Shown in pieces: positions 20,380 through 62,096 of a stretch of 64,000 nucleotides of DNA. Positions within the stretch are counted from its first letter, which is position 1, and each line of letters starts with the position of its first letter. The position numbers and the translations under genes were made by a program. This stretch comes from Janthinobacterium sp. LM6 (lineage in GTDB: Bacteria > Pseudomonadota > Gammaproteobacteria > Burkholderiales > Burkholderiaceae_D): contig NZ_CP019510.1 of assembly GCF_002002885.1 (NCBI RefSeq), forward strand, positions 310,001-374,000, read 5' to 3'. The notes under the pieces are model-generated. The model was given only the letters and a program-made list of their open reading frames with translations. It was not told the DNA's origin and made no database searches.

Positions 20380-20853
20380 ATGAACGATAGCAACATTACC
20401 CTCGACGAGATCGATCGTCGCATCCTGAACGCCTTGCAAATTGATGCATCGCAAACCAACAGTGAGCTGGCGCAAGCGGTGCACGTTTCGGCGCCCACCT
20501 GTTTGCGGCGGGTCAAGCATTTGCGGGAAAGCGGCGTCATCGAACGGCAAGTGGCCATCGTCGCGCCGCAGCTGGTGGGGGCGCGCCTGACCGCCATCGT
20601 GGAAATCACGCTCGACGTGCAGGCGGCGGAGCGCATGGCGGAATTCGAGCAGCTCGTGGCGCAGGAAGCGGCCGTGCTGCAATGCTACCGCGTCTCGCCC
20701 GGCCCTGACTTCGTGCTGATGGTGCAGGTGGCCGACATGCCCGCGTATCACGCGCTGGCGCACCGCCTGTTTGCCGCGCACGCGAATGTGCGCAACGTCA
20801 AAAGCTATTTTTCCACGTTCCGCAGCAAATTCGAGACGCGCATCGCCGTGTGA
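20380..20853 (+). CDS. Lrp/AsnC family transcriptional regulator
   Basis: The protein has 157 residues, with ATG 20380 giving the standard family N-terminus. The DNA-binding domain (about 8-60) contains L-D-E-I-D-R-R-I-L-N-A-L-Q and V-S-A-P-T-C-L-R-R-V-K-H-L-R-E-S-G. The C-terminal RAM domain (about 75-150) contains C-Y-R-V-S-P-G-P-D-F-V-L-M-V-Q-V and ends with S-Y-F-S-T-F-R-S-K-F. It is an amino-acid-responsive regulator of the small single-domain type. No obvious target gene is adjacent on the same strand; glmS is divergent. Confidence 0.92.
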   Translation: MNDSNITLDEIDRRILNALQIDASQTNSELAQAVHVSAPTCLRRVKHLRESGVIERQVAIVAPQLVGARLTAIVEITLDVQAAERMAEFEQLVAQEAAVLQCYRVSPGPDFVLMVQVADMPAYHALAHRLFAAHANVRNVKSYFSTFRSKFETRIAV

Positions 20854-20867
20854 TTCTTTACTTTCAT

Positions 20868-21140
20868 TTATCCACCGTTTGCCCACCGCTTGCCCACACA
20901 CTTATACGGCGCTTTTCCACCGCTTATGCCGCACTTGCCCACAGGCTTATGCACAAGCATGACGCGGGCAAGCCATGGCAGCAGAGCAAGGGATGCGCGG
21001 GGAAGCAGCGCCAGGCGGCCCGCGACGGTACTGCACCGGCATGCAAAAAGTGTACAAGCTACTGCCAGGTCAACTTGTGCACCGGCAGCACACAGCTTGC
21101 CAACAAGTTAGCAGCCCACTTATCGACAGGCTTATCCACA
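20868..21140 (+). repeat. Gene-free stretch with degenerate DnaA-box-like 9-mers
   Basis: This 314-bp gap has no plausible gene. It holds a direct-orientation series of 9-mers related to TTATCCACA: TTATCCACC 20868, TTGCCCACC 20879, TTGCCCACA 20890, TTTTCCACC 20913, TTGCCCACA 20935, TTATGCACA 20947, TTATCGACA near 21119 and one perfect TTATCCACA at 21132-21140. The first three lie exactly 11 bp apart, about one helical turn. The role is unknown; DnaA titration is one possibility. Confidence 0.6.
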
Positions 21141-21167
21141 GCCTGTCCGCGGCGGCAGGCGGCAAAC

Positions 21168-30980: not shown

Positions 30981-31013
30981 GCAACAGCCGGAAGCCCGAC
31001 TTTCGGCTGTTGC
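30981..31013 (+). terminator. Hairpin after tpsB
   Basis: GCAACAGCCG and CGGCTGTTGC form a perfect 10-bp stem around a 13-base loop, 7 bp after the tpsB stop. Only a short T-poor tail follows. Confidence 0.6.
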
Positions 31014-31030
31014 TTGATCCAACGCAAGAG

Positions 31031-31352
31031 TTACCCACCAGCTATCCACCGTCTGTGCACGGTTTTTCCACAGGCTTACCCACAGCGATATCCTGAAAGT
31101 GGGTGACAAATATGCAGTTATCCCCACTTGTACCCACGCTATCCAGCGCTTATCCGCAGACTTACGCACAGAGTTATCCACAATCCGCAGAAAAAGGGGA
31201 TTACATCGCTGGCAAACCGCTGGAATCAGCGGAAAAGGCAGCGACAAGCGCATGGCGGGCCAGATTGAAAAACTTGCCAACAGCTTATGCGCAGGCTTGC
31301 ACACAGGCTTATGCGCCACTTGTGCAGTGGCTTGCCCACAGAGTTATCCACA
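31031..31352 (+). repeat. Gene-free stretch with a second array of DnaA-box-like 9-mers
   Basis: No gene is seen between tpsB and glmU. The stretch is filled with direct-orientation variants of TTATCCACA: TTACCCACC 31031, CTATCCACC, TTTTCCACA, TTACCCACA, TTATCCCCA, TTATCCGCA, TTACGCACA, a perfect copy at 31174-31182, TTATGCGCA, TTGCACACA, TTGCCCACA and a second perfect copy at 31344-31352. The density is far above chance and all copies share one orientation. The role is unknown. Confidence 0.65.
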
Positions 31353-31354
31353 TA

Positions 31355-31382
31355 CAAAAAAGGCAGGCCATGCGGCCTGCCT
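31355..31382 (-). terminator. Rho-independent terminator of glmU
   Basis: On the minus strand AGGCAGGCC-GCAT-GGCCTGCCT is a 9-bp stem followed by six T residues (A-run 31355-31360 on the plus strand), 25 bp beyond the glmU stop. Confidence 0.85.
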
Positions 31383-35553: not shown

Positions 35554-35562
35554 TTATCCACA
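35554..35562 (+). other. Isolated perfect DnaA box
   Basis: TTATCCACA lies 26 bp before the start of the chalcone-isomerase-like gene, overlapping its likely promoter. DnaA could influence that gene, but a single box may be chance. Confidence 0.4.
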
Positions 35563-44809: not shown

Positions 44810-44928
44810 GCTGTTTTTACAGGTTTTTTGGATTGCCAAACGGTTTACAGGGTGAAAACAGCTATTTCGGTGACTTTTCCACCGTGCGCGTTTGTCTCTG
44901 TGTTTTAAATAAAGATGTATACATAAAA

Positions 44929-45124
44929 ATAGTAGTGATAGTAAACGGCCATTTTTTTGTGGATAAGTCGGTATACCGTATAAAAATCATCGACTTGGCG
45001 CACAAAAAAGTAGGCGCACAAGCATTGTATCTACGGAGGACTTGTTTGGGATAAAAATCGGGCTGTGGACAAAGATCGACTTTTCCCACATCTCATCCTG
45101 TGGATATGCAGGTACTTATCCACA
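44929..45124 (+). repeat. Origin module 1
   Basis: The module opens with ATAGTAGTGATAGTAAACG (44929-44947), then has a box at 44958-44966 (minus orientation), a TGTATC in the middle, a one-mismatch box at 45099 and a closing box at 45116-45124 (plus orientation). It is 196 bp long. Confidence 0.75.
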
Positions 45125-45392
45125 GTGACAAGCAGAAATCACGGGTTTTCTTGCTGCAGTGACATGTTTGACGGCATTTGCGTGCACTGATCCCTGTCTG
45201 GCAATGCATGTTGAGCGATCACGAACACGGTTCTTTCGCGAACATCGGCGTCCAGGTAATTCCTGGAAGACGGTTTGGCAGTGGGTCGCGCTGTCGCCGT
45301 TGGCTTTTTTTTTGATGCTTTTTGCATGCTTTTTGGAAATATCCCCGGACTTCCGCTTTTTTTGTCGGTTTACAATAGATCTATATATAAAA

Positions 45393-45587
45393 ATAGTAGT
45401 AATAGTAAACGCGTTTTTTTCTGTGGATAAGTCGCTTTTTTTCAACAGGATCAATCGTTTACGCGCAAAATAAAGCGTGCATAATCGCTGTATCACGCGA
45501 GGAGCAAAATTGTATAAAATGCGGGCCTGCGCATAACTTCGTGTTTACTCACAAGTCATCCTGTGGATATCAAGCGACTTATCCACA
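45393..45587 (+). repeat. Origin module 2
   Basis: The module opens with ATAGTAGTAATAGTAAACG (45393-45411), then has a box at 45422-45430, a TGTATC in the middle, a one-mismatch box at 45562 and a closing box at 45579-45587. It is 195 bp long and begins 464 bp after module 1. Confidence 0.75.
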
Positions 45588-45865
45588 ATCGCCTCAAATT
45601 CCCCTTCTTTTCGACATCGAACCGTTTGTTGGCACTGTGCCTGCTCAAGCCGGTTGACGTTTCCATTTTGCAAAACGGTTTGGCAGTGCTGTGTGCGTGA
45701 TGGCGGCCGCGCCGGTTTTCGTCGCTCAGTTGTTGGCTGGATTTTTTTTGTCAGCCAAAGCAGTTCGGCGGTTTTTTTTGAAGTCAGGCTTATGAACCTT
45801 CCCGAAGGCGAAGGTCAGGCAAAGCGCGCGTTGTCGGGTTTACCTTAACAAGTTCGTATACAAGA

Positions 45866-46062
45866 ATAGTAATAGTAGTTAACGGCGGCATCTTCTGTGG
45901 ATAAGTCCGGATTTATCCTTGTAAACAATCGCTTGGCGTGCGGATAAACGCTGAGTAAACGTTGTATCGGCTTGGGATGGTTTTGGGATAAAAAAAAGTC
46001 GTCCAAAAAAATTTTCGTTTACTCACATATCGTACCTGTGGATATCCATACGGTTATCCACA
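45866..46062 (+). repeat. Origin module 3
   Basis: The module opens with ATAGTAATAGTAGTTAACG (45866-45884), then has a box at 45896-45904, a TGTATC in the middle, a one-mismatch box at 46037 and a closing box at 46054-46062. It is 197 bp long and begins 473 bp after module 2. The segment TTTACTCAC before the closing pair is shared with module 2. Confidence 0.75.
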
Positions 46063-46284
46063 GCTCGCAACCCCTGTTTGGAGCGGGTTTTCAGCTGTCA
46101 GATGAGCTCGTTTACGCGGTGATCATGCTGGCCATGCGATTAATGTCGCCCTGGCCCGGCACTGGTGGTAATCTCAAGGCGGCTCAGCAGCCATGCATGC
46201 ATGAAGAAAGACAGACTCTGGTAAAGGGACGCGGTGAGGAGACACGCCGCGCGACAGCTTGATGGCATACCGAAAGGAGCTTCA

Positions 46285-47910
46285 TTGGAATCGGCAGGCG
46301 AATACGACTACATCATCGTGGGCGGCGGCACGGCAGGTTGCGTGCTGGCCAACCGGCTCACGCGCGACAAGGATGCCAATGTTTTACTCGTGGAAGCGGG
46401 CGGCAAGGACGATTACGTGTGGATCCACATCCCCGTCGGCTATCTGCATTGCATCGGCAATCCCCGCACAGACTGGCTGTATTCCACGCAGGCGGACCCG
46501 GGGCTGGGCGGGCGCAGCCTGATGTATCCGCGCGGAAAAGTCCTGGGCGGCAGCTCTTCCATCAACGGCATGATCTATATGCGCGGCCAGGCCGGCGATT
46601 ACGACCACTGGGCCGACCTGACGGACGACGCCTCCTGGCGCTGGGACAAAGTCTTGCCGTTGTTCAAACAAAGCGAGGATTATTACGGCGGCGCGTCCGA
46701 AAACCATGGCGCGGGCGGCGAGTGGCGCGTGGAAAAACAGCGGCTGTCGTGGGATATTTTGAATGCTTTCCGCGATGCGGCGCAGCAAGTCGGCATTCCG
46801 AAAACCAGCGATTTCAACGGTGGAGATAATAGCGGCAGCGCCTATTTCGACGTCAACCAGCGCCGCGGCATCCGCTGGAATACCTCCAAAGCGTTTCTGA
46901 AACCGGCATCGCGCCGGCCGAACCTGACCATCATGACGGGTTGCCACGTGGAACGTCTATTGATCGAGACCACGGACGCGGGGCCGCGCTGCACGGGCAT
47001 CGTGTTGACGGGCGGCGGCACGCAGTGGCAGGCGACGGCCCGGCGTGAAACTTTATTGACGGCGGGCGCCATCGGTTCGCCGCAATTGCTGCAATTGTCC
47101 GGCATCGGCCCGGCCGCCTTGCTGCGCGAACATGGCATCACGCCCGTGCTGGACTCGGCTGGCGTGGGCGGCAATTTGCAGGATCACTTGCAGCTGCGCA
47201 TGGTTTACAAGGTGCAGGGCGTGAAAACCTTGAATGTGATGGCCAGCAATATCGTGGGAAAAATGCAGATCGGCTTGCAATATGCGCTGTTCCAGAGCGG
47301 GCCCATGTCGATGGCGCCGTCGCAGCTGGGAGCGTTTGCCAAGTCCGACCCGCAGCAAGCCACGCCGAACCTGCAATACCATGTGCAACCCTTGTCCTTG
47401 GACAAATTCGGCGAACCGCTGCACGCGTTTCCCGCGTTTACGGCCAGCGTGTGCAATCTGCGCCCCACCTCGCGCGGCCATGTGCATATCGCGTCGGCCG
47501 ACAGTTATGCGGCGCCGAAGATCGTGCCCAATTACCTGAGTACCGAGCAGGACCGCGCCGTGGCGGCCGACGCCTTGCGCCTGACGCGGGCCATCGCCGC
47601 CGCGCCGGCGTTAAGTAAGTTTGCGCCGCAGGAATACAAGCCCGGCGTGCAATTCCAGAGCCAGGAAGAGCTGGCGCAGGCGGCCAGCCAGATCGGCACC
47701 ACCATTTTTCATCCCGTCGGTACCTGCCGCATGGGCCTGGCCAGCGATGCCTCGAGCGTGGTCGACAGCCAGCTGCGCGTGCTCGGCGTGGGGGGCTTGC
47801 GCGTCGTCGATGCGTCGATCATGCCGTACATTACTTCTGGTAATACGAACTCGCCCACCGTGATGATCGCGGAAAAAGCGGCGCAAATGATACACGCGGC
47901 CTGGAAATAG
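46285..47910 (+). CDS. GMC family oxidoreductase (choline dehydrogenase-like)
   Basis: The protein has 541 residues. The start is placed at TTG 46285, because AAAGGAG (46273-46279) lies at ideal distance and the protein then begins E-S-A-G-E-Y-D-Y-I-I-V-G-G-G-T-A-G. That is the FAD dinucleotide-binding motif. G-G-S-S-S-I-N-G-M-I-Y-M-R-G-Q near 90 is GMC signature 1, and H-P-V-G-T-C-R-M-G near 475 contains the catalytic His region. It oxidises an alcohol with flavin. No betaine genes are adjacent, so the substrate is open. Confidence 0.92.
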   Translation: MESAGEYDYIIVGGGTAGCVLANRLTRDKDANVLLVEAGGKDDYVWIHIPVGYLHCIGNPRTDWLYSTQADPGLGGRSLMYPRGKVLGGSSSINGMIYMRGQAGDYDHWADLTDDASWRWDKVLPLFKQSEDYYGGASENHGAGGEWRVEKQRLSWDILNAFRDAAQQVGIPKTSDFNGGDNSGSAYFDVNQRRGIRWNTSKAFLKPASRRPNLTIMTGCHVERLLIETTDAGPRCTGIVLTGGGTQWQATARRETLLTAGAIGSPQLLQLSGIGPAALLREHGITPVLDSAGVGGNLQDHLQLRMVYKVQGVKTLNVMASNIVGKMQIGLQYALFQSGPMSMAPSQLGAFAKSDPQQATPNLQYHVQPLSLDKFGEPLHAFPAFTASVCNLRPTSRGHVHIASADSYAAPKIVPNYLSTEQDRAVAADALRLTRAIAAAPALSKFAPQEYKPGVQFQSQEELAQAASQIGTTIFHPVGTCRMGLASDASSVVDSQLRVLGVGGLRVVDASIMPYITSGNTNSPTVMIAEKAAQMIHAAWK

Positions 47911-57330: not shown

Positions 57331-57346
57331 TGTTCCACGTGAAACA
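57331..57346. other. parS site
   Basis: TGTTCCACGTGAAACA differs from the universal TGTTTCACGTGAAACA at one base. It lies in the intergenic region between gdx and mnmG, 3 kb before parA. Confidence 0.88.
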
Positions 57347-57479: not shown

Positions 57480-59417
57480 ATGTTATTTCCTACAGAATTC
57501 GACGTCATCGTTGTCGGTGGTGGTCACGCCGGTACCGAGGCGGCCCTCGCTTCCGCCCGCATGGGGCAGAAGACGCTATTGCTCACGCATAATATTGAGA
57601 CACTGGGCCAGATGTCGTGCAACCCTTCCATCGGAGGCATCGGCAAGGGCCACCTGGTCAAGGAAGTCGATGCCATGGGCGGCGCGATGGCGATCGCCAC
57701 CGACGAGTCCGGCATCCAGTTCCGCATCCTGAATTCCTCGAAAGGCCCGGCAGTCCGCGCCACGCGCGCCCAGGCCGACCGCATTTTGTACAAGGCCGCC
57801 ATTCGTACGCGCCTGGAAAACCAGCCGAATCTGTGGCTGTTCCAGCAAGCCGTCGACGATTTGATCGTCGAAGGCGACCGGGTCGTCGGCGCCGTGACGC
57901 AGATCGGCCTGAAGTTCCTGTCGCGCGCCGTCGTGCTGACGGCCGGTACCTTCCTCGACGGCAAGATCCACGTGGGCTTGAATAACTACTCGGCCGGCCG
58001 TGCCGGCGACCCGCCTGCCATCTCCTTGTCGGCCCGCCTGAAAGAACTGAAACTGCCGCAGGGCCGCTTGAAAACGGGCACGCCGCCGCGCATCGATGGC
58101 CGCACGATCGACTTTTCCGTGATGCAAGAACAGCCGGGCGACCTCGATCCCGTGCCCGTGTTTTCCGTGATGGGCAACACGGCCATGCACCCGCGTCAGG
58201 TGCCATGCTGGGTCACGCACACGAATAGCCAGACGCACGACATCATCCGCGCCGGCCTGGACCGCAGCCCCATGTATACGGGCGTCATCGAAGGCGTGGG
58301 GCCCCGTTATTGCCCGTCGATCGAAGACAAGATCCACCGTTTTTCGGGCAAGGAATCGCACCAGATCTTCCTCGAGCCGGAAGGCTTGACGACGCATGAG
58401 TTCTATCCGAATGGCATCTCCACGAGCTTGCCGTTCGACGTGCAGATCGCCCTGGTGCAGTCGATGAAGGGGATGGAAAACGCGCACATCCTGCGTCCCG
58501 GCTATGCCATCGAATACGATTATTTCGACCCGCGCGGCTTGAAGGCATCGCTGGAAACGAAGGCCGTCGCCGGCCTGTTCTTCGCCGGCCAGATCAACGG
58601 CACCACGGGCTACGAGGAAGCGGCCGCGCAAGGCATGCTGGCGGGCCTGAATGCGGCCTTGCTGACGCAGGACAAGGAAGCCTGGGTACCGGGCCGCTCC
58701 GAGGCCTATCTGGGCGTGCTGGTCGACGATCTGATCACGCAGGGCGTGCAGGAACCGTACCGCATGTTCACCAGCCGCGCCGAGTACCGTTTGAGCCTGC
58801 GCGAAGACAATGCCGACATGCGCCTGACGGAGATCGGCCGCGCCCTGGGCTGCGTGGGCGACGCTCAATGGCAAGCGTTTGAAACGAAGCGCGAAGCGGT
58901 GGCGCGCGAACTCGAGCGCCTGCGTTCCACGTGGGTCAACCCGCGCATCCTGGCGGCCGCCGAATCGGAACGTATCGTGGGCCAGGCCATCGAGCGCGAG
59001 TATTCGCTGGCGGACTTGCTGCGCCGTCCGAACGTCGCCTACGACACCCTGATGAGCATGACGGGTATCGAAGGCCAGGCCCTGGCAGGTCCCGGCGTGG
59101 AAGATGCAGCCGTGCGCGAGCAGGTGGAAATCCAGCTCAAATATGCGGGTTACATCGAGCGCCAGAGCAAGGAAATCGAGCGTCACGAACACTATGAAAA
59201 CCTGGCTTTGCCAGAGGGTTTCAATTACCTGGATATCGGCGCGCTGTCCGTCGAAGTGCGGCAAAAACTCGACAAGCAGCGCCCGGAAACCCTGGGCCAG
59301 GCTTCGCGCATTTCCGGCGTGACGCCGGCGGCGATCTCGCTGCTGCTGGTCCACCTGAAAAAGCGCGGCTTCGGTGCCGCGCAGACCACCACTTTAAAGG
59401 ACGAGGTTGTTGAATGA
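57480..59417 (+). CDS. mnmG: tRNA uridine-5-carboxymethylaminomethyl modification enzyme
   Basis: The protein has 645 residues. ATG 57480 is chosen because [19 protein letters not shown] begins the FAD-binding fold as in all MnmG proteins. [11 protein letters not shown] near 50, [10 protein letters not shown] near 200 and [14 protein letters not shown] near 370 are family signatures. With MnmE it modifies the wobble uridine of several tRNAs. It overlaps rsmG by 4 bp and starts the mnmG-rsmG-parA-parB order. Confidence 0.97.
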
Positions 59418-60058
59418 AGCAGTTTGACCGGGCCGCATTGGCCCAGATTTTGAATGAAGGCATCGCCGCGCTGGGGCTGGACCTGAGCGCGGATCAGACG
59501 GAAAAACTGCTCGATTACCTGGCCTTGCTGGCCAAATGGAACAGCGTGTACAACCTGACGTCGGTGCGCGATCCGCTGCAGATGCTGACTCTGCACGTGC
59601 TCGATTCGCTGGCCGCTGTGCCGGCGTTCGCGGAGGCGAAAAACGTGCTCGACGTGGGCGCCGGCGGCGGCTTGCCGGGCATGGTATTGGCCATCGCCCG
59701 GCCCGATGTGAAGGTGTCGATGATCGACACGGTGCATAAAAAGACGGCATTCCTGACGCAAGTGAAGGCCGAACTGGGCCTGGCCAACGTTACCGTGTAC
59801 ACGAAACGGGTGGAACAGCTGGAAGTGGCGCAGAAATTCGATGTGATCACCTCGCGCGCCTTTGCCGATCTGTCCGACTTCGTCAACTGGTCGAACCACG
59901 TGCTGGCCGAGGGCGGGCAATTCATCGCCTTGAAAGGGGTGGCACCGCCAGACGAGAGAGAGAGACTGCCGGCAGACTGGCAAGTGACGGAATTACGGCC
60001 TATCCAGGTGCCAGGGTTAAATGCAGAGCGTCATCTGGTCTTTATGGCAAGAATTTAA
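59414..60058 (+). CDS. rsmG: 16S rRNA (guanine(527)-N(7))-methyltransferase
   Basis: The protein has 214 residues. ATGA overlap with mnmG couples translation. [12 protein letters not shown] near 38, [13 protein letters not shown] near 78 (SAM site) and [10 protein letters not shown] near 145 are RsmG signatures. It makes m7G527; loss of it gives low-level streptomycin resistance in other bacteria. Confidence 0.96.
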
Positions 60059-60311: not shown

Positions 60312-60376
60312 ATTACGACCTACTTAGATGCCGGGGCGCACGATGAAGTTTGCATCTCTTTACAACTAGAAGATAC

Positions 60377-61147
60377 ATGGCCAAAATTTTTTGTGTAGCA
60401 AATCAAAAGGGTGGTGTTGGTAAAACCACAACAAGCGTCAACCTCTCCGCCGGTCTGGCCAAGTTGAACCAGCGCGTGCTGCTGGTCGACCTCGACCCGC
60501 AGGGCAATGCGACCATGGGTGCCGGCATCAACAAGGCCGGCCTGAAGGCGTCCACTTATGAAGTCATGCTGGGCGAGTCCGATGTCAAGACGGCACGCCA
60601 GCGTTCGGAAGCGGGACGCTTCGACGTCTTGCCGTCGAACCGCGAGCTGGCCGGCGCGGAAGTGGAGATGGTCGAACTCGACAACCGCGAACGCCGTCTG
60701 AAGGATGCGCTGGCCGAAGTGGACGGCGAATACGATTTCATTTTGGTAGATTGCCCACCGGCATTATCGATGCTGACCCTGAACGGCCTGTGCGCCGCGC
60801 ATGGCGTGATCATCCCGATGCAGTGCGAGTACTACGCGCTGGAAGGTTTGTCCGACCTGGTCAACACCATCAAGAAGGTGCATGCCAACCTGAACCCGGA
60901 CTTGAAGATCATCGGCTTGCTGCGCGTGATGTTCGATCCACGCATGACATTATCACAACAAGTGTCGGCGCAGCTGGAACAGCACTTCGGCGACAAGGTA
61001 TTCAATACCATCATCCCGCGCAATGTCCGCCTGGCCGAAGCGCCATCGTACGGCTTGCCCGGCGTGACCTTCGACCCCAGCTCGAAAGGAGCCCAGGCGT
61101 ATATCGCCTTCGGCGCCGAGATGGTCGAACGCATCAAACATATGTAA
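60377..61147 (+). CDS. parA: Chromosome partitioning ATPase ParA
   Basis: The protein has 256 residues. ATG 60377 gives A-K-I-F-C-V-A-N-Q-K-G-G-V-G-K-T-T-T, the deviant Walker A with two Lys residues of the ParA/MinD family. V-D-L-D-P-Q-G-N-A near 42 and D-C-P-P-A-L near 125 are the other nucleotide motifs. No N-terminal DNA-binding domain is present, so it is the chromosomal (type Ib-like / Soj) form. It works with ParB and the parS sites to move new origins. Confidence 0.96.
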   Translation: MAKIFCVANQKGGVGKTTTSVNLSAGLAKLNQRVLLVDLDPQGNATMGAGINKAGLKASTYEVMLGESDVKTARQRSEAGRFDVLPSNRELAGAEVEMVELDNRERRLKDALAEVDGEYDFILVDCPPALSMLTLNGLCAAHGVIIPMQCEYYALEGLSDLVNTIKKVHANLNPDLKIIGLLRVMFDPRMTLSQQVSAQLEQHFGDKVFNTIIPRNVRLAEAPSYGLPGVTFDPSSKGAQAYIAFGAEMVERIKHM

Positions 61148-61211: not shown

Positions 61212-62096
61212 ATGGCTACGAAAAAATTAAAAGGACTGGGTCGCGGACTCGACGCCCTGTTGGGCGGCGGCGGCGATTTTGCCAGTCCGGACACGAATCA
61301 ACCGTCGAACTTGCCCGTGTCGCAAATGCAAGCCGGCAAATACCAGCCGCGCACGCGCATGGACGAGGGGGCCTTGAATGAACTGGCCGCCTCGATCAAG
61401 GCGCAGGGGCTGATGCAGCCGATCCTGGTACGCCCGATCGGGCAAGATACCCTGAGCGGCGTTATCAAATATGAAATCATCGCCGGCGAACGCCGTTTCC
61501 GCGCCTCGCAGTTGGCTGGCCTGACGGAAGTGCCGGTGCTGGTGCGCGATGTGGACGATCTGGCGGCCGCCGCCATGGCGCTGATCGAGAATATCCAGCG
61601 CGAAGACTTGAATCCGCTGGAAGAGGCGCAGGGCATCCACCGCCTGATCGCCGACTTCAGTTTTACGCATGAGCAAGCGGCCACTGCGCTGGGACGCTCG
61701 CGCAGCGCCGTGTCTAACCTGTTGCGCCTGATGAACCTGGCCGCTCCCGTGCAGACCATGCTGATGGCCGGCGATATCGACATGGGCCATGCGCGCGCGC
61801 TGCTGGCCGTCGATGCGGCCAGCCAGATCACCCTGGCGAACCAGGTCGTGGCCAAGCGCCTGTCGGTGCGTGAAACGGAAAAGCTCGTTACCCGCACGGT
61901 CGAGGAAGCGGCCAACCCGGTCGAACCGCGGCAGAAGGAAAAGTCCGGCGACATCGCGCGCCTCGAAGAAGAGCTGTCCGATGCGTTGGCCACGCCCGTG
62001 GTGTTCAAGATGGGCAACAAGGGCCGTGGCCAATTGGTGATCGATTTTGCCGATCTTGACGTGCTCGATGGTTTGTTGACCCGCTTGCGTGGTTAA
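61212..62096 (+). CDS. parB: Chromosome partitioning protein ParB
   Basis: The protein has 294 residues. The basic start K-K-L-K-G-L-G-R-G-L-D-A-L-L contains the ParA-stimulating motif. The N-domain has the CTP-binding G-E-R-R-F-R-A box near 95 and I-E-N-I-Q-R-E-D-L-N-P-L-E-E-A near 125. The helix-turn-helix T-A-L-G-R-S-R-S-A-V-S-N-L-L-R-L recognises parS, and the C-terminal dimer domain ends the protein. It loads and slides at the parS sites listed here. Confidence 0.96.
   Translation: MATKKLKGLGRGLDALLGGGGDFASPDTNQPSNLPVSQMQAGKYQPRTRMDEGALNELAASIKAQGLMQPILVRPIGQDTLSGVIKYEIIAGERRFRASQLAGLTEVPVLVRDVDDLAAAAMALIENIQREDLNPLEEAQGIHRLIADFSFTHEQAATALGRSRSAVSNLLRLMNLAAPVQTMLMAGDIDMGHARALLAVDAASQITLANQVVAKRLSVRETEKLVTRTVEEAANPVEPRQKEKSGDIARLEEELSDALATPVVFKMGNKGRGQLVIDFADLDVLDGLLTRLRG

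What the first reader, a model, noticed from the sequence alone, without database searches (positions are those of the whole stretch)
44841..46070. Three-module DnaA-box region, a likely chromosomal origin away from dnaA
Six perfect DnaA boxes lie in 1.1 kb as three inverted pairs with spacings of 158, 157 and 158 bp inside modules of 195-197 bp. Each module opens with an ATAGTAGTAATAGTAAACG-type AT block and contains TGTATC between the two boxes. Module starts are 464 and 473 bp apart. Triplication with diverged filler but conserved box spacing implies selection. Known oriC regions usually have irregular box clusters beside dnaA; here the neighbours are mtnN and a GMC oxidoreductase gene.
Basis: partly seen in the sequence, partly recalled or inferred. 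Interest (0 to 1): 0.85.

Follow-up and report, generated by a model that had tools for sequence, protein, structure and literature searches.

The report
Three-unit bacterial chromosome replication origin
This stretch is very probably where the bacterium starts copying its chromosome, and instead of one start unit it carries three similar units in a row, far from the gene for the start protein; most related bacteria of the same family that were searched carry two or three such units too.

Summary
In detail: six perfect DnaA boxes form three inverted pairs (158, 157, 158 bp). In this genome (one 6.29-Mb contig, Janthinobacterium by a relative's named contig) the origin reading is well supported: GC skew is mostly negative through dnaA up to about 354 kb, then mostly positive; the cumulative minimum is 353,712, the modules start at 354.9 kb. 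The one [11 protein letters not shown] site, mnmG and parAB lie 11-16 kb away. Each module reads as a full initiation unit: AT-rich stretch, DnaA-trios, R1-type box, IHF-like site at the E. coli offset +28, inverted distal box. A module model finds only these three copies here, one or more in 370 of 392 family genomes and, by hand count, two or more in 310. In 7 of 13 chosen outgroup genomes a match sits directly after dnaA. Modules are 86-91% conserved in the genus, fillers 66-69%. Skew in two other genera did not place the origin. Origins away from dnaA are known; my ten paper searches listed no repeated complete units. Whether each unit fires is untested.

The parts
44896..45126 (+). Module 1 (DUE-like AT stretch, DnaA-trios, box R1-like, IHF-like site, TGTATC, distal box)
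   Evidence: R1 model match C1:354897-355126 = window 44897-45126; 90% mean identity across 9 genus loci
45360..45589 (+). Module 2
   Evidence: R1 model match C1:355361-355588; 91% mean identity across 9 genus loci
45831..46064 (+). Module 3
   Evidence: R1 model match C1:355833-356063; 86% mean identity across 9 genus loci
44930..44946 (+). DnaA-trio block of module 1, TAGTAGTGATAGTAAAC
   Evidence: trio definition from PMC8287927
45394..45410 (+). DnaA-trio block of module 2, TAGTAGTAATAGTAAAC; overlaps the third least stable 50-mer of the window
45867..45883 (+). DnaA-trio block of module 3, TAGTAATAGTAGTTAAC
44958..44966 (-). DnaA box, trio-proximal (R1-like), module 1
45116..45124 (+). 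DnaA box, distal (R4-like), module 1
45422..45430 (-). DnaA box, trio-proximal, module 2
45579..45587 (+). DnaA box, distal, module 2
45896..45904 (-). DnaA box, trio-proximal, module 3
46054..46062 (+). DnaA box, distal, module 3
44985..44997 (+). IHF-like site of module 1, AATCATCGACTTG (1 mismatch to WATCARNNNNTTR)
45449..45461 (+). IHF-like site of module 2, GATCAATCGTTTA (1 mismatch)
45923..45935 (+). IHF-like site of module 3, AAACAATCGCTTG (1 mismatch)
45026..45031 (+). Conserved TGTATC, module 1 (45489-45494 in module 2, 45963-45968 in module 3)
45099..45107 (-). One-mismatch DnaA box TGTGGATAT, module 1 (45562-45570 in module 2, 46037-46045 in module 3)
46234..47910 (+). GMC oxidoreductase gene, right neighbour (longest ORF; true start may lie further in)
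57331..57346 (.). parS, the only exact match of TGTTNCACGTGNAACA in the genome
57393..59417 (+). mnmG (gidA)
59414..60058 (+). rsmG (gidB)
60350..61147 (+). parA-like ATPase gene
61212..62096 (+). parB

Best explanation
The region is oriC of this chromosome, and it is built of three tandem, diverged copies of an initiation unit that resembles E. coli oriC's left half plus R4. Inferred mechanism: DnaA binds the two outward-facing high-affinity boxes of a unit; IHF binds about 28 bp inside the trio-proximal box and bends the DNA so that weak boxes and the distal box are brought in; ATP-DnaA grows from the proximal box across a 13-15 bp spacer onto the single-stranded DnaA-trios (TAG/TAA type) and opens the AT-rich stretch beside them; helicase is then loaded. 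I think at least two units can open, so that units back each other up or raise the number of DnaA molecules needed before firing. Shown here: position of the skew switch in this genome, anatomy, spacings, conservation, copy number. Inferred: binding, bending, melting, and which units fire. Split of confidence: that it is oriC, about 0.95; that each unit has the described anatomy, about 0.9; that more than one unit opens in cells, about 0.5.
For: Skew switch and minimum at 353.7 kb, bootstrap range excluding dnaA. Sampled skew turns negative again between the windows at 3.36 and 3.50 Mb; the point opposite 355 kb is 3.50 Mb. parS at 367,331, mnmG at 367,501. Three model matches in the genome, none elsewhere at E <= 1e-4 among 56 scored candidates. 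In 65 aligned modules from 29 loci: box spacing 156-159 in 61, 144-146 in the other 4 (about one helical turn less); best IHF match at offset +28 in 63 of 65; at that offset 56 of 65 have at most one mismatch and 9 have two, against 0.5% of all positions with at most one. E. coli MG1655: an IHF-like match also at +28 from R1; R1-R4 180 bp. The 65 were picked by similarity to this window's modules, so these counts lean towards the pattern. Within the genus, modules are 0.86-0.91 identical, fillers 0.66-0.69. Modules lie 0.2-15 kb from mnmG in 26 of 26 family genomes examined.
Against: The skew test outside the genus failed to help: in G281, 40 sampled windows favour neither modules nor dnaA (signed means -0.0039 and -0.0041; best about 5.75-6.0 Mb, +0.0069), and in G107, 20 windows of 10 kb are weak. 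22 of 392 family genomes have no match and 60 have one only (hand count), so several modules are not found everywhere. Each IHF-like site in this window has one mismatch, and E. coli's at +28 has two, with two other equal matches in the stretch scanned. AT content left of the proximal box is 0.68 and 0.71 in modules 1 and 2 but 0.57 in module 3 (window mean 0.38). The module profile also gave E 1e-10 to 3e-14 in loci of unrelated phyla that had been pre-selected for a box pair (L162, L182, L225), so weak matches elsewhere need not be homologous. No binding, melting or read-depth data.
Confidence: 0.85

Rival explanations
1. The region is oriC, but only one module opens; the other two are DnaA binding platforms that titrate DnaA or help assembly, as the non-opening part of a bipartite origin does.
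For: Bipartite origins with one opening part are known in Helicobacter and other Epsilonproteobacteria (PMC5043019, passages). The window's modules differ (m1-m2 62%, m1-m3 56%, m2-m3 57% identity) and m3 is less AT-rich. Within the genus each module forms its own clade (ultrafast bootstrap 100, 100, 99), and m3 groups with last modules of Massilia and Duganella (98), which fits different roles.
Against: The trio-block end motif lies 13-15 bp from the box in 65 of 65 modules and an IHF-like match with at most two mismatches at +28 in 65 of 65, several modules per locus included; a pure binding platform would not need trios. The 65 were picked by similarity, which weakens this.
Confidence: 0.4
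2. A DnaA-regulating site (datA- or DARS-like cluster) and not the origin; the true origin is at dnaA.
For: This genome has DARS-core-like sites elsewhere, so DnaA box clusters outside the origin exist here. dnaA has two boxes upstream. In one relative, G068, the DARS pattern with one mismatch overlaps a module end.
Against: Skew minimum range 314-372 kb excludes dnaA; 15 of 17 windows between dnaA and the modules have left-arm skew. In the window's genome the DARS pattern, with up to one mismatch, does not occur in the modules. The dnaA-dnaN gap holds no TTATNCACA and no model match. parS and parAB are near the modules.
Confidence: 0.03
3. A repeated regulatory region of the neighbouring mtnN-like and GMC oxidoreductase genes with DnaA-controlled promoters.
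For: Intergenic position between divergent genes.
Against: Module-to-mnmG proximity holds in 26 of 26 family genomes examined, 0.2 kb in three; in 7 chosen outgroup genomes a match lies after dnaA. Neighbour genes were named only in this window.
Confidence: 0.01

Closest known systems
E. coli oriC (MG1655, L243)
   Same: Trio/DUE-proximal box in reverse orientation, IHF-like match at +28 from it, distal box inverted; lies beside mnmG.
   Different: One unit instead of three; R1-R4 180 bp instead of 156-159; E. coli oriC has eleven GATC (PMC10380432), the three modules with flanks three in all. L, M, R 13-mers were not looked for.
Basal unwinding system (BUS: DnaA box plus DnaA-trios), PMC8287927
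   Different: Here two or more model matches per genome in 310 of 392 family genomes (hand count). I saw passages and the first of two parts of the results of that paper and cannot say whether its tables list an origin with several.
Cupriavidus metallidurans CHR1 origin (PMC2864759, passages)
   Same: Order Burkholderiales (recalled); skew switch about 90 kb from dnaA, next to 213 nt with three perfect DnaA boxes.
   Different: No module anatomy or repetition described in the passages seen.
Bipartite origins of Helicobacter and other Epsilonproteobacteria (PMC5043019, passages)
   Same: More than one box cluster in an origin; outward-facing distal box in three species.
   Different: Only one cluster has the opening element, and the clusters flank dnaA.

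Membership tests
DnaA-dependent chromosomal oriC | GC-skew switch at the site | tested here: met
   Minimum 353,712; bootstrap 314-372 kb
DnaA-dependent chromosomal oriC | Cluster of DnaA boxes beside a low-stability AT-rich stretch | tested here: met
   Boxes; modules 2 and 1 hold the third and sixth least stable 50-mers of the window, module 3 is not among the twelve listed
DnaA-dependent chromosomal oriC | parS/parAB/mnmG neighbourhood | tested here: met
DnaA-dependent chromosomal oriC | Read-depth peak and autonomous replication | not testable with these tools
   no reads, no bench
DnaA-dependent chromosomal oriC | Skew switch at the same locus in other genera | tested here: inconclusive
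   G281 40 windows, G107 20 windows
BUS (DnaA box + DnaA-trios) | At least three trios within 16 bp of a DnaA box | tested here: met
   trio blocks of the three modules; distances 13-15 in 65 of 65 modules picked by similarity
BUS (DnaA box + DnaA-trios) | DnaA-dependent strand opening | not testable with these tools
   -
E. coli-type oriC unit | IHF site at the E. coli offset from R1 | tested here: met
   +28 best in 63 of 65 and among the best in E. coli; that the E. coli match is IBS1 is recalled
E. coli-type oriC unit | R1-R4 spacing of 180 bp | tested here: not met
   156-159 in 61 of 65, 144-146 in 4
E. coli-type oriC unit | GATC-rich (SeqA/Dam control) | tested here: not met
   1, 2 and 0 GATC in the three modules with flanks
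E. coli-type oriC unit | IHF and its binding present in the organism | not tested
   genes for IHF were not searched
DARS core | Head-to-head boxes 14 bp apart and a third at +12 | tested here: not met
   own-genome matches of the pattern are three places outside the modules

The most novel reading that the evidence does not exclude
A bacterial origin made of three complete, separately selected unwinding units in tandem, each able to open DNA, kept in this genus and paralleled by two- or three-unit origins through the family after the origin parted from dnaA; unit identity, not only number, is under selection.
Probability: 0.43. Interest if true: 0.78.

Novelty: new variant of a known kind. 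Interest (0 to 1): 0.62.

Why it matters
If several units open, the usual picture of one opening element per bacterial origin needs a natural exception that runs through a family. The searched family genomes hold one, two or three matches, in direct tandem or, in two genomes, inverted, with tight spacing inside a unit and loose spacing between units. That makes the family a natural test bed for what one origin unit needs and for why more than one would be kept. It also shows E. coli-like spacing of R1 and the IHF-like site in another class of bacteria. For annotation: this contig is numbered from near dnaA, 355 kb from the skew switch.

Tried and rejected
Considered and rejected: origin at dnaA (skew); datA/DARS reading of the modules; promoter reading. 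Tried without result: Tandem Repeats Finder on the 1.79-Mb array found nothing. Skew in G281 and G107 did not place an origin. My box scan recognised no DARS-like trio of boxes in the stretch fetched for E. coli DARS2, only one in that fetched for DARS1; that these stretches hold DARS1 and DARS2 is recalled. The mtnN figure is not used, because several loci do not reach that far. The clade supports printed after midpoint rooting are shifted near the root; I use the split supports (the cross-genus m1 group has 62, not the 100 printed). In one search only five candidates per genome were scored, and a match can be counted again on the opposite strand (seen in G141), so counts per genome are approximate. 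The 39 genomes were chosen by me, 38 of them single contigs (G086 has two), several because a match lay near the contig start, so the outgroup proportion is not a random sample.

Full report
Observation. Six perfect DnaA boxes lie at 44958, 45116, 45422, 45579, 45896 and 46054 as three inverted pairs. The pair pattern occurs three times in the genome, all here, with no reversed-control match in any of the 40 genus genomes searched. The spacings are as stated, except that module starts are 464 and 474 bp apart on the boxes (464 and 470 on the AT block).

Whole-chromosome test. The genome is one contig of 6,288,464 bp; the window is 310,001-374,000; dnaA's C-terminal domain is at 1,805-2,011. 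I took 80 windows of 20 kb: 40 contiguous from -200 to +600 kb, the rest spread. With the origin at 355 kb, 29 of 32 right-arm windows are positive and 44 of 48 left-arm windows negative; the best symmetric origin on a 10-kb grid is 360 kb. The cumulative minimum within the contiguous 800 kb is at 353,712, block-bootstrap 95% range 314-372 kb. The sampled skew turns negative again between the windows at 3.36 and 3.50 Mb; the point opposite 355 kb is 3.50 Mb. One exact [11 protein letters not shown] site (367,331), mnmG (367,501), rsmG, a parA-like gene and parB follow within 16 kb of the modules. The genus is called Janthinobacterium because genus member G006 has a contig of the same length, 597,428 bp, and with module hits as the named J. 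lividum contig NZ_JAAOLY010000001.1.

Anatomy. I aligned 65 modules from 29 loci (alignment A1), taken from second-round profile hits with E < 1e-27 in a set of loci that I chose; being picked by similarity, they lean towards the pattern. Reading left to right: an AT-rich stretch; ATAGTAGTAGTAGTTAAC, that is TAG/TAA triplets as in DnaA-trios read 3' to 5' from the box; a spacer; CTGTGGATAAG; aaTCAa....TT; TGTAT; weak box-like stretches; TGTGGATATCC; TTATCCACA. The trio-to-box distance is 13 (14 modules), 14 (27) or 15 (24). Box-to-box is 156-159 in 61 modules and 144-146 in 4. The IHF-like match is best at +28 in 63; at +28 all 65 have at most two mismatches, 56 at most one. E. coli's R1 also has an IHF-like match at +28 (two mismatches, not unique) and R4 at +180; 180 is about two helical turns more than 158. 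The left DOR of E. coli holds R1 and an IHF site and is what is needed for opening (PMC10380432, passages).

Conservation. The paired pattern is in 39 of 40 genus genomes (37 of 37 of good quality) and 281 of 392 family genomes (258 of 346 good ones). A sequence-only model (R1) finds a match in 370 of 392 family genomes, 336 of 346 good ones; by my hand count of that table 60 have one and 310 two or more. In a sample of 150 genomes of the order 75 have a match, 4 of them in the family; of the other 71, 57 have one by hand count. Outside the family most of these are weak; the same profile reached E 3e-14 in a locus of an unrelated phylum pre-selected for a box pair, so weak matches may be general origin likeness rather than homology. 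Named holders with strong profile hits are Janthinobacterium, Massilia, Duganella, Herbaspirillum and Undibacterium. Within the genus, across nine loci, modules are 86-91% identical to the window and the two fillers 66% and 69%. The modules of the window are 56-62% identical to each other, less than to their counterparts in genus member G002 (71-79%).

Evolution. In a maximum-likelihood tree of the 65 modules (split supports) each Janthinobacterium module forms its own clade (100, 100, 99). m3 groups with the last modules of three Massilia loci and one Duganella locus (98). m1 groups with first modules of Massilia (and one second module) with only 62. In other loci (L099, L101, L097/L098, L095/L096, L102/L103) the modules of one lineage group together (94-100), which means separate duplications or conversion there. 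Among 26 family genomes the modules lie 0.2-15 kb from mnmG in all; the distance to dnaA, which I could compute or bound for 24, runs from 14 to about 790 kb. In two genomes (G161, G191) the two modules face opposite ways. In 7 of 13 chosen outgroup genomes one match lies 67-139 bp beyond the DnaA domain, on the opposite strand to dnaA; two of these seven are strong (4e-21, 9e-19), five weak (2e-8 to 8e-5) and supported mainly by their place. I read one, G421, where a trio-like block is present and the start of what looks like dnaN follows. Of the other outgroups, G482 has two tandem matches 16 kb from dnaA, G487, G444 and G518 have matches elsewhere, and G395 and G412 have none. So the module seems to be an old origin unit that sits at dnaA in several relatives and near mnmG, often in two or three copies, in this family. 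The window's own dnaA-dnaN gap has no TTATNCACA.

Results against. The skew check in two further genera did not work: G281 supports neither site, G107 is too noisy. So the claim that the modules are the origin rests on this genome's skew, and for the rest of the family on conservation and neighbourhood. Module 3 is less AT-rich than the others. Some family genomes have one match or none.

Print record. Ten searches of the paper library listed, in the rows shown (titles and starts of abstracts), no paper on an Oxalobacteraceae origin or on repeated complete origin units; several searches listed only part of their hits, and most subscription journals and bioRxiv are not held, so this is weak evidence of absence. 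An origin about 90 kb from dnaA is in print for Cupriavidus metallidurans (PMC2864759, passages).

Verdict. It is a new variant of a known kind. Whether more than one unit fires is the open and testable question.

Noticed in passing
own genome C1:113604-113638, C1:4439126-4439160, C1:4440179-4440213 (L007, L069): Three sites with the box arrangement and the exact 14 and 12 bp spacing seen in the E. coli bioD-uvrB stretch (DARS1, recalled), each with a perfect IHF consensus starting exactly 119 bp after the first box. The pattern with up to one mismatch is in 82 of 145 family genomes, no reversed-control match in any row, and three in each of the 8 Janthinobacterium genomes searched. The DARS2 paper whose passages I saw speaks of gamma-proteobacteria (PMC8682772).
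   Followed up: partly
own genome C1:~1791180-1792220 (L050:11180-12220): Intergenic-looking array of about seven diverged ~150-bp units; five show a DnaA box head-to-head with a weaker TTYTGCACA box 14 bp on, and IHF-like sites lie between: looks like a multiplied DARS- or datA-like site in the right arm.
   Followed up: partly
window 20850-21150, 31010-31360, 35554-35562: Further DnaA boxes on the + strand near the origin; the first two lie in stretches with many CCACA/TTATCC-like words.
   Followed up: no
window 44833-44846, 45264-45283, 45668-45688: A short repeat around AACGGTTTGGCAGTG in the fillers and a related stretch left of module 1; no known role.
   Followed up: no
G161:C1:4057294 and 4060129; G191:C1:4043092 and 4043871: Two modules in opposite orientation, unlike the direct tandem in the window.
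   Followed up: no
G281, 6.02 Mb contig: Sampled skew hardly organised around either dnaA or the modules; rearranged chromosome or assembly, not resolved.
   Followed up: partly
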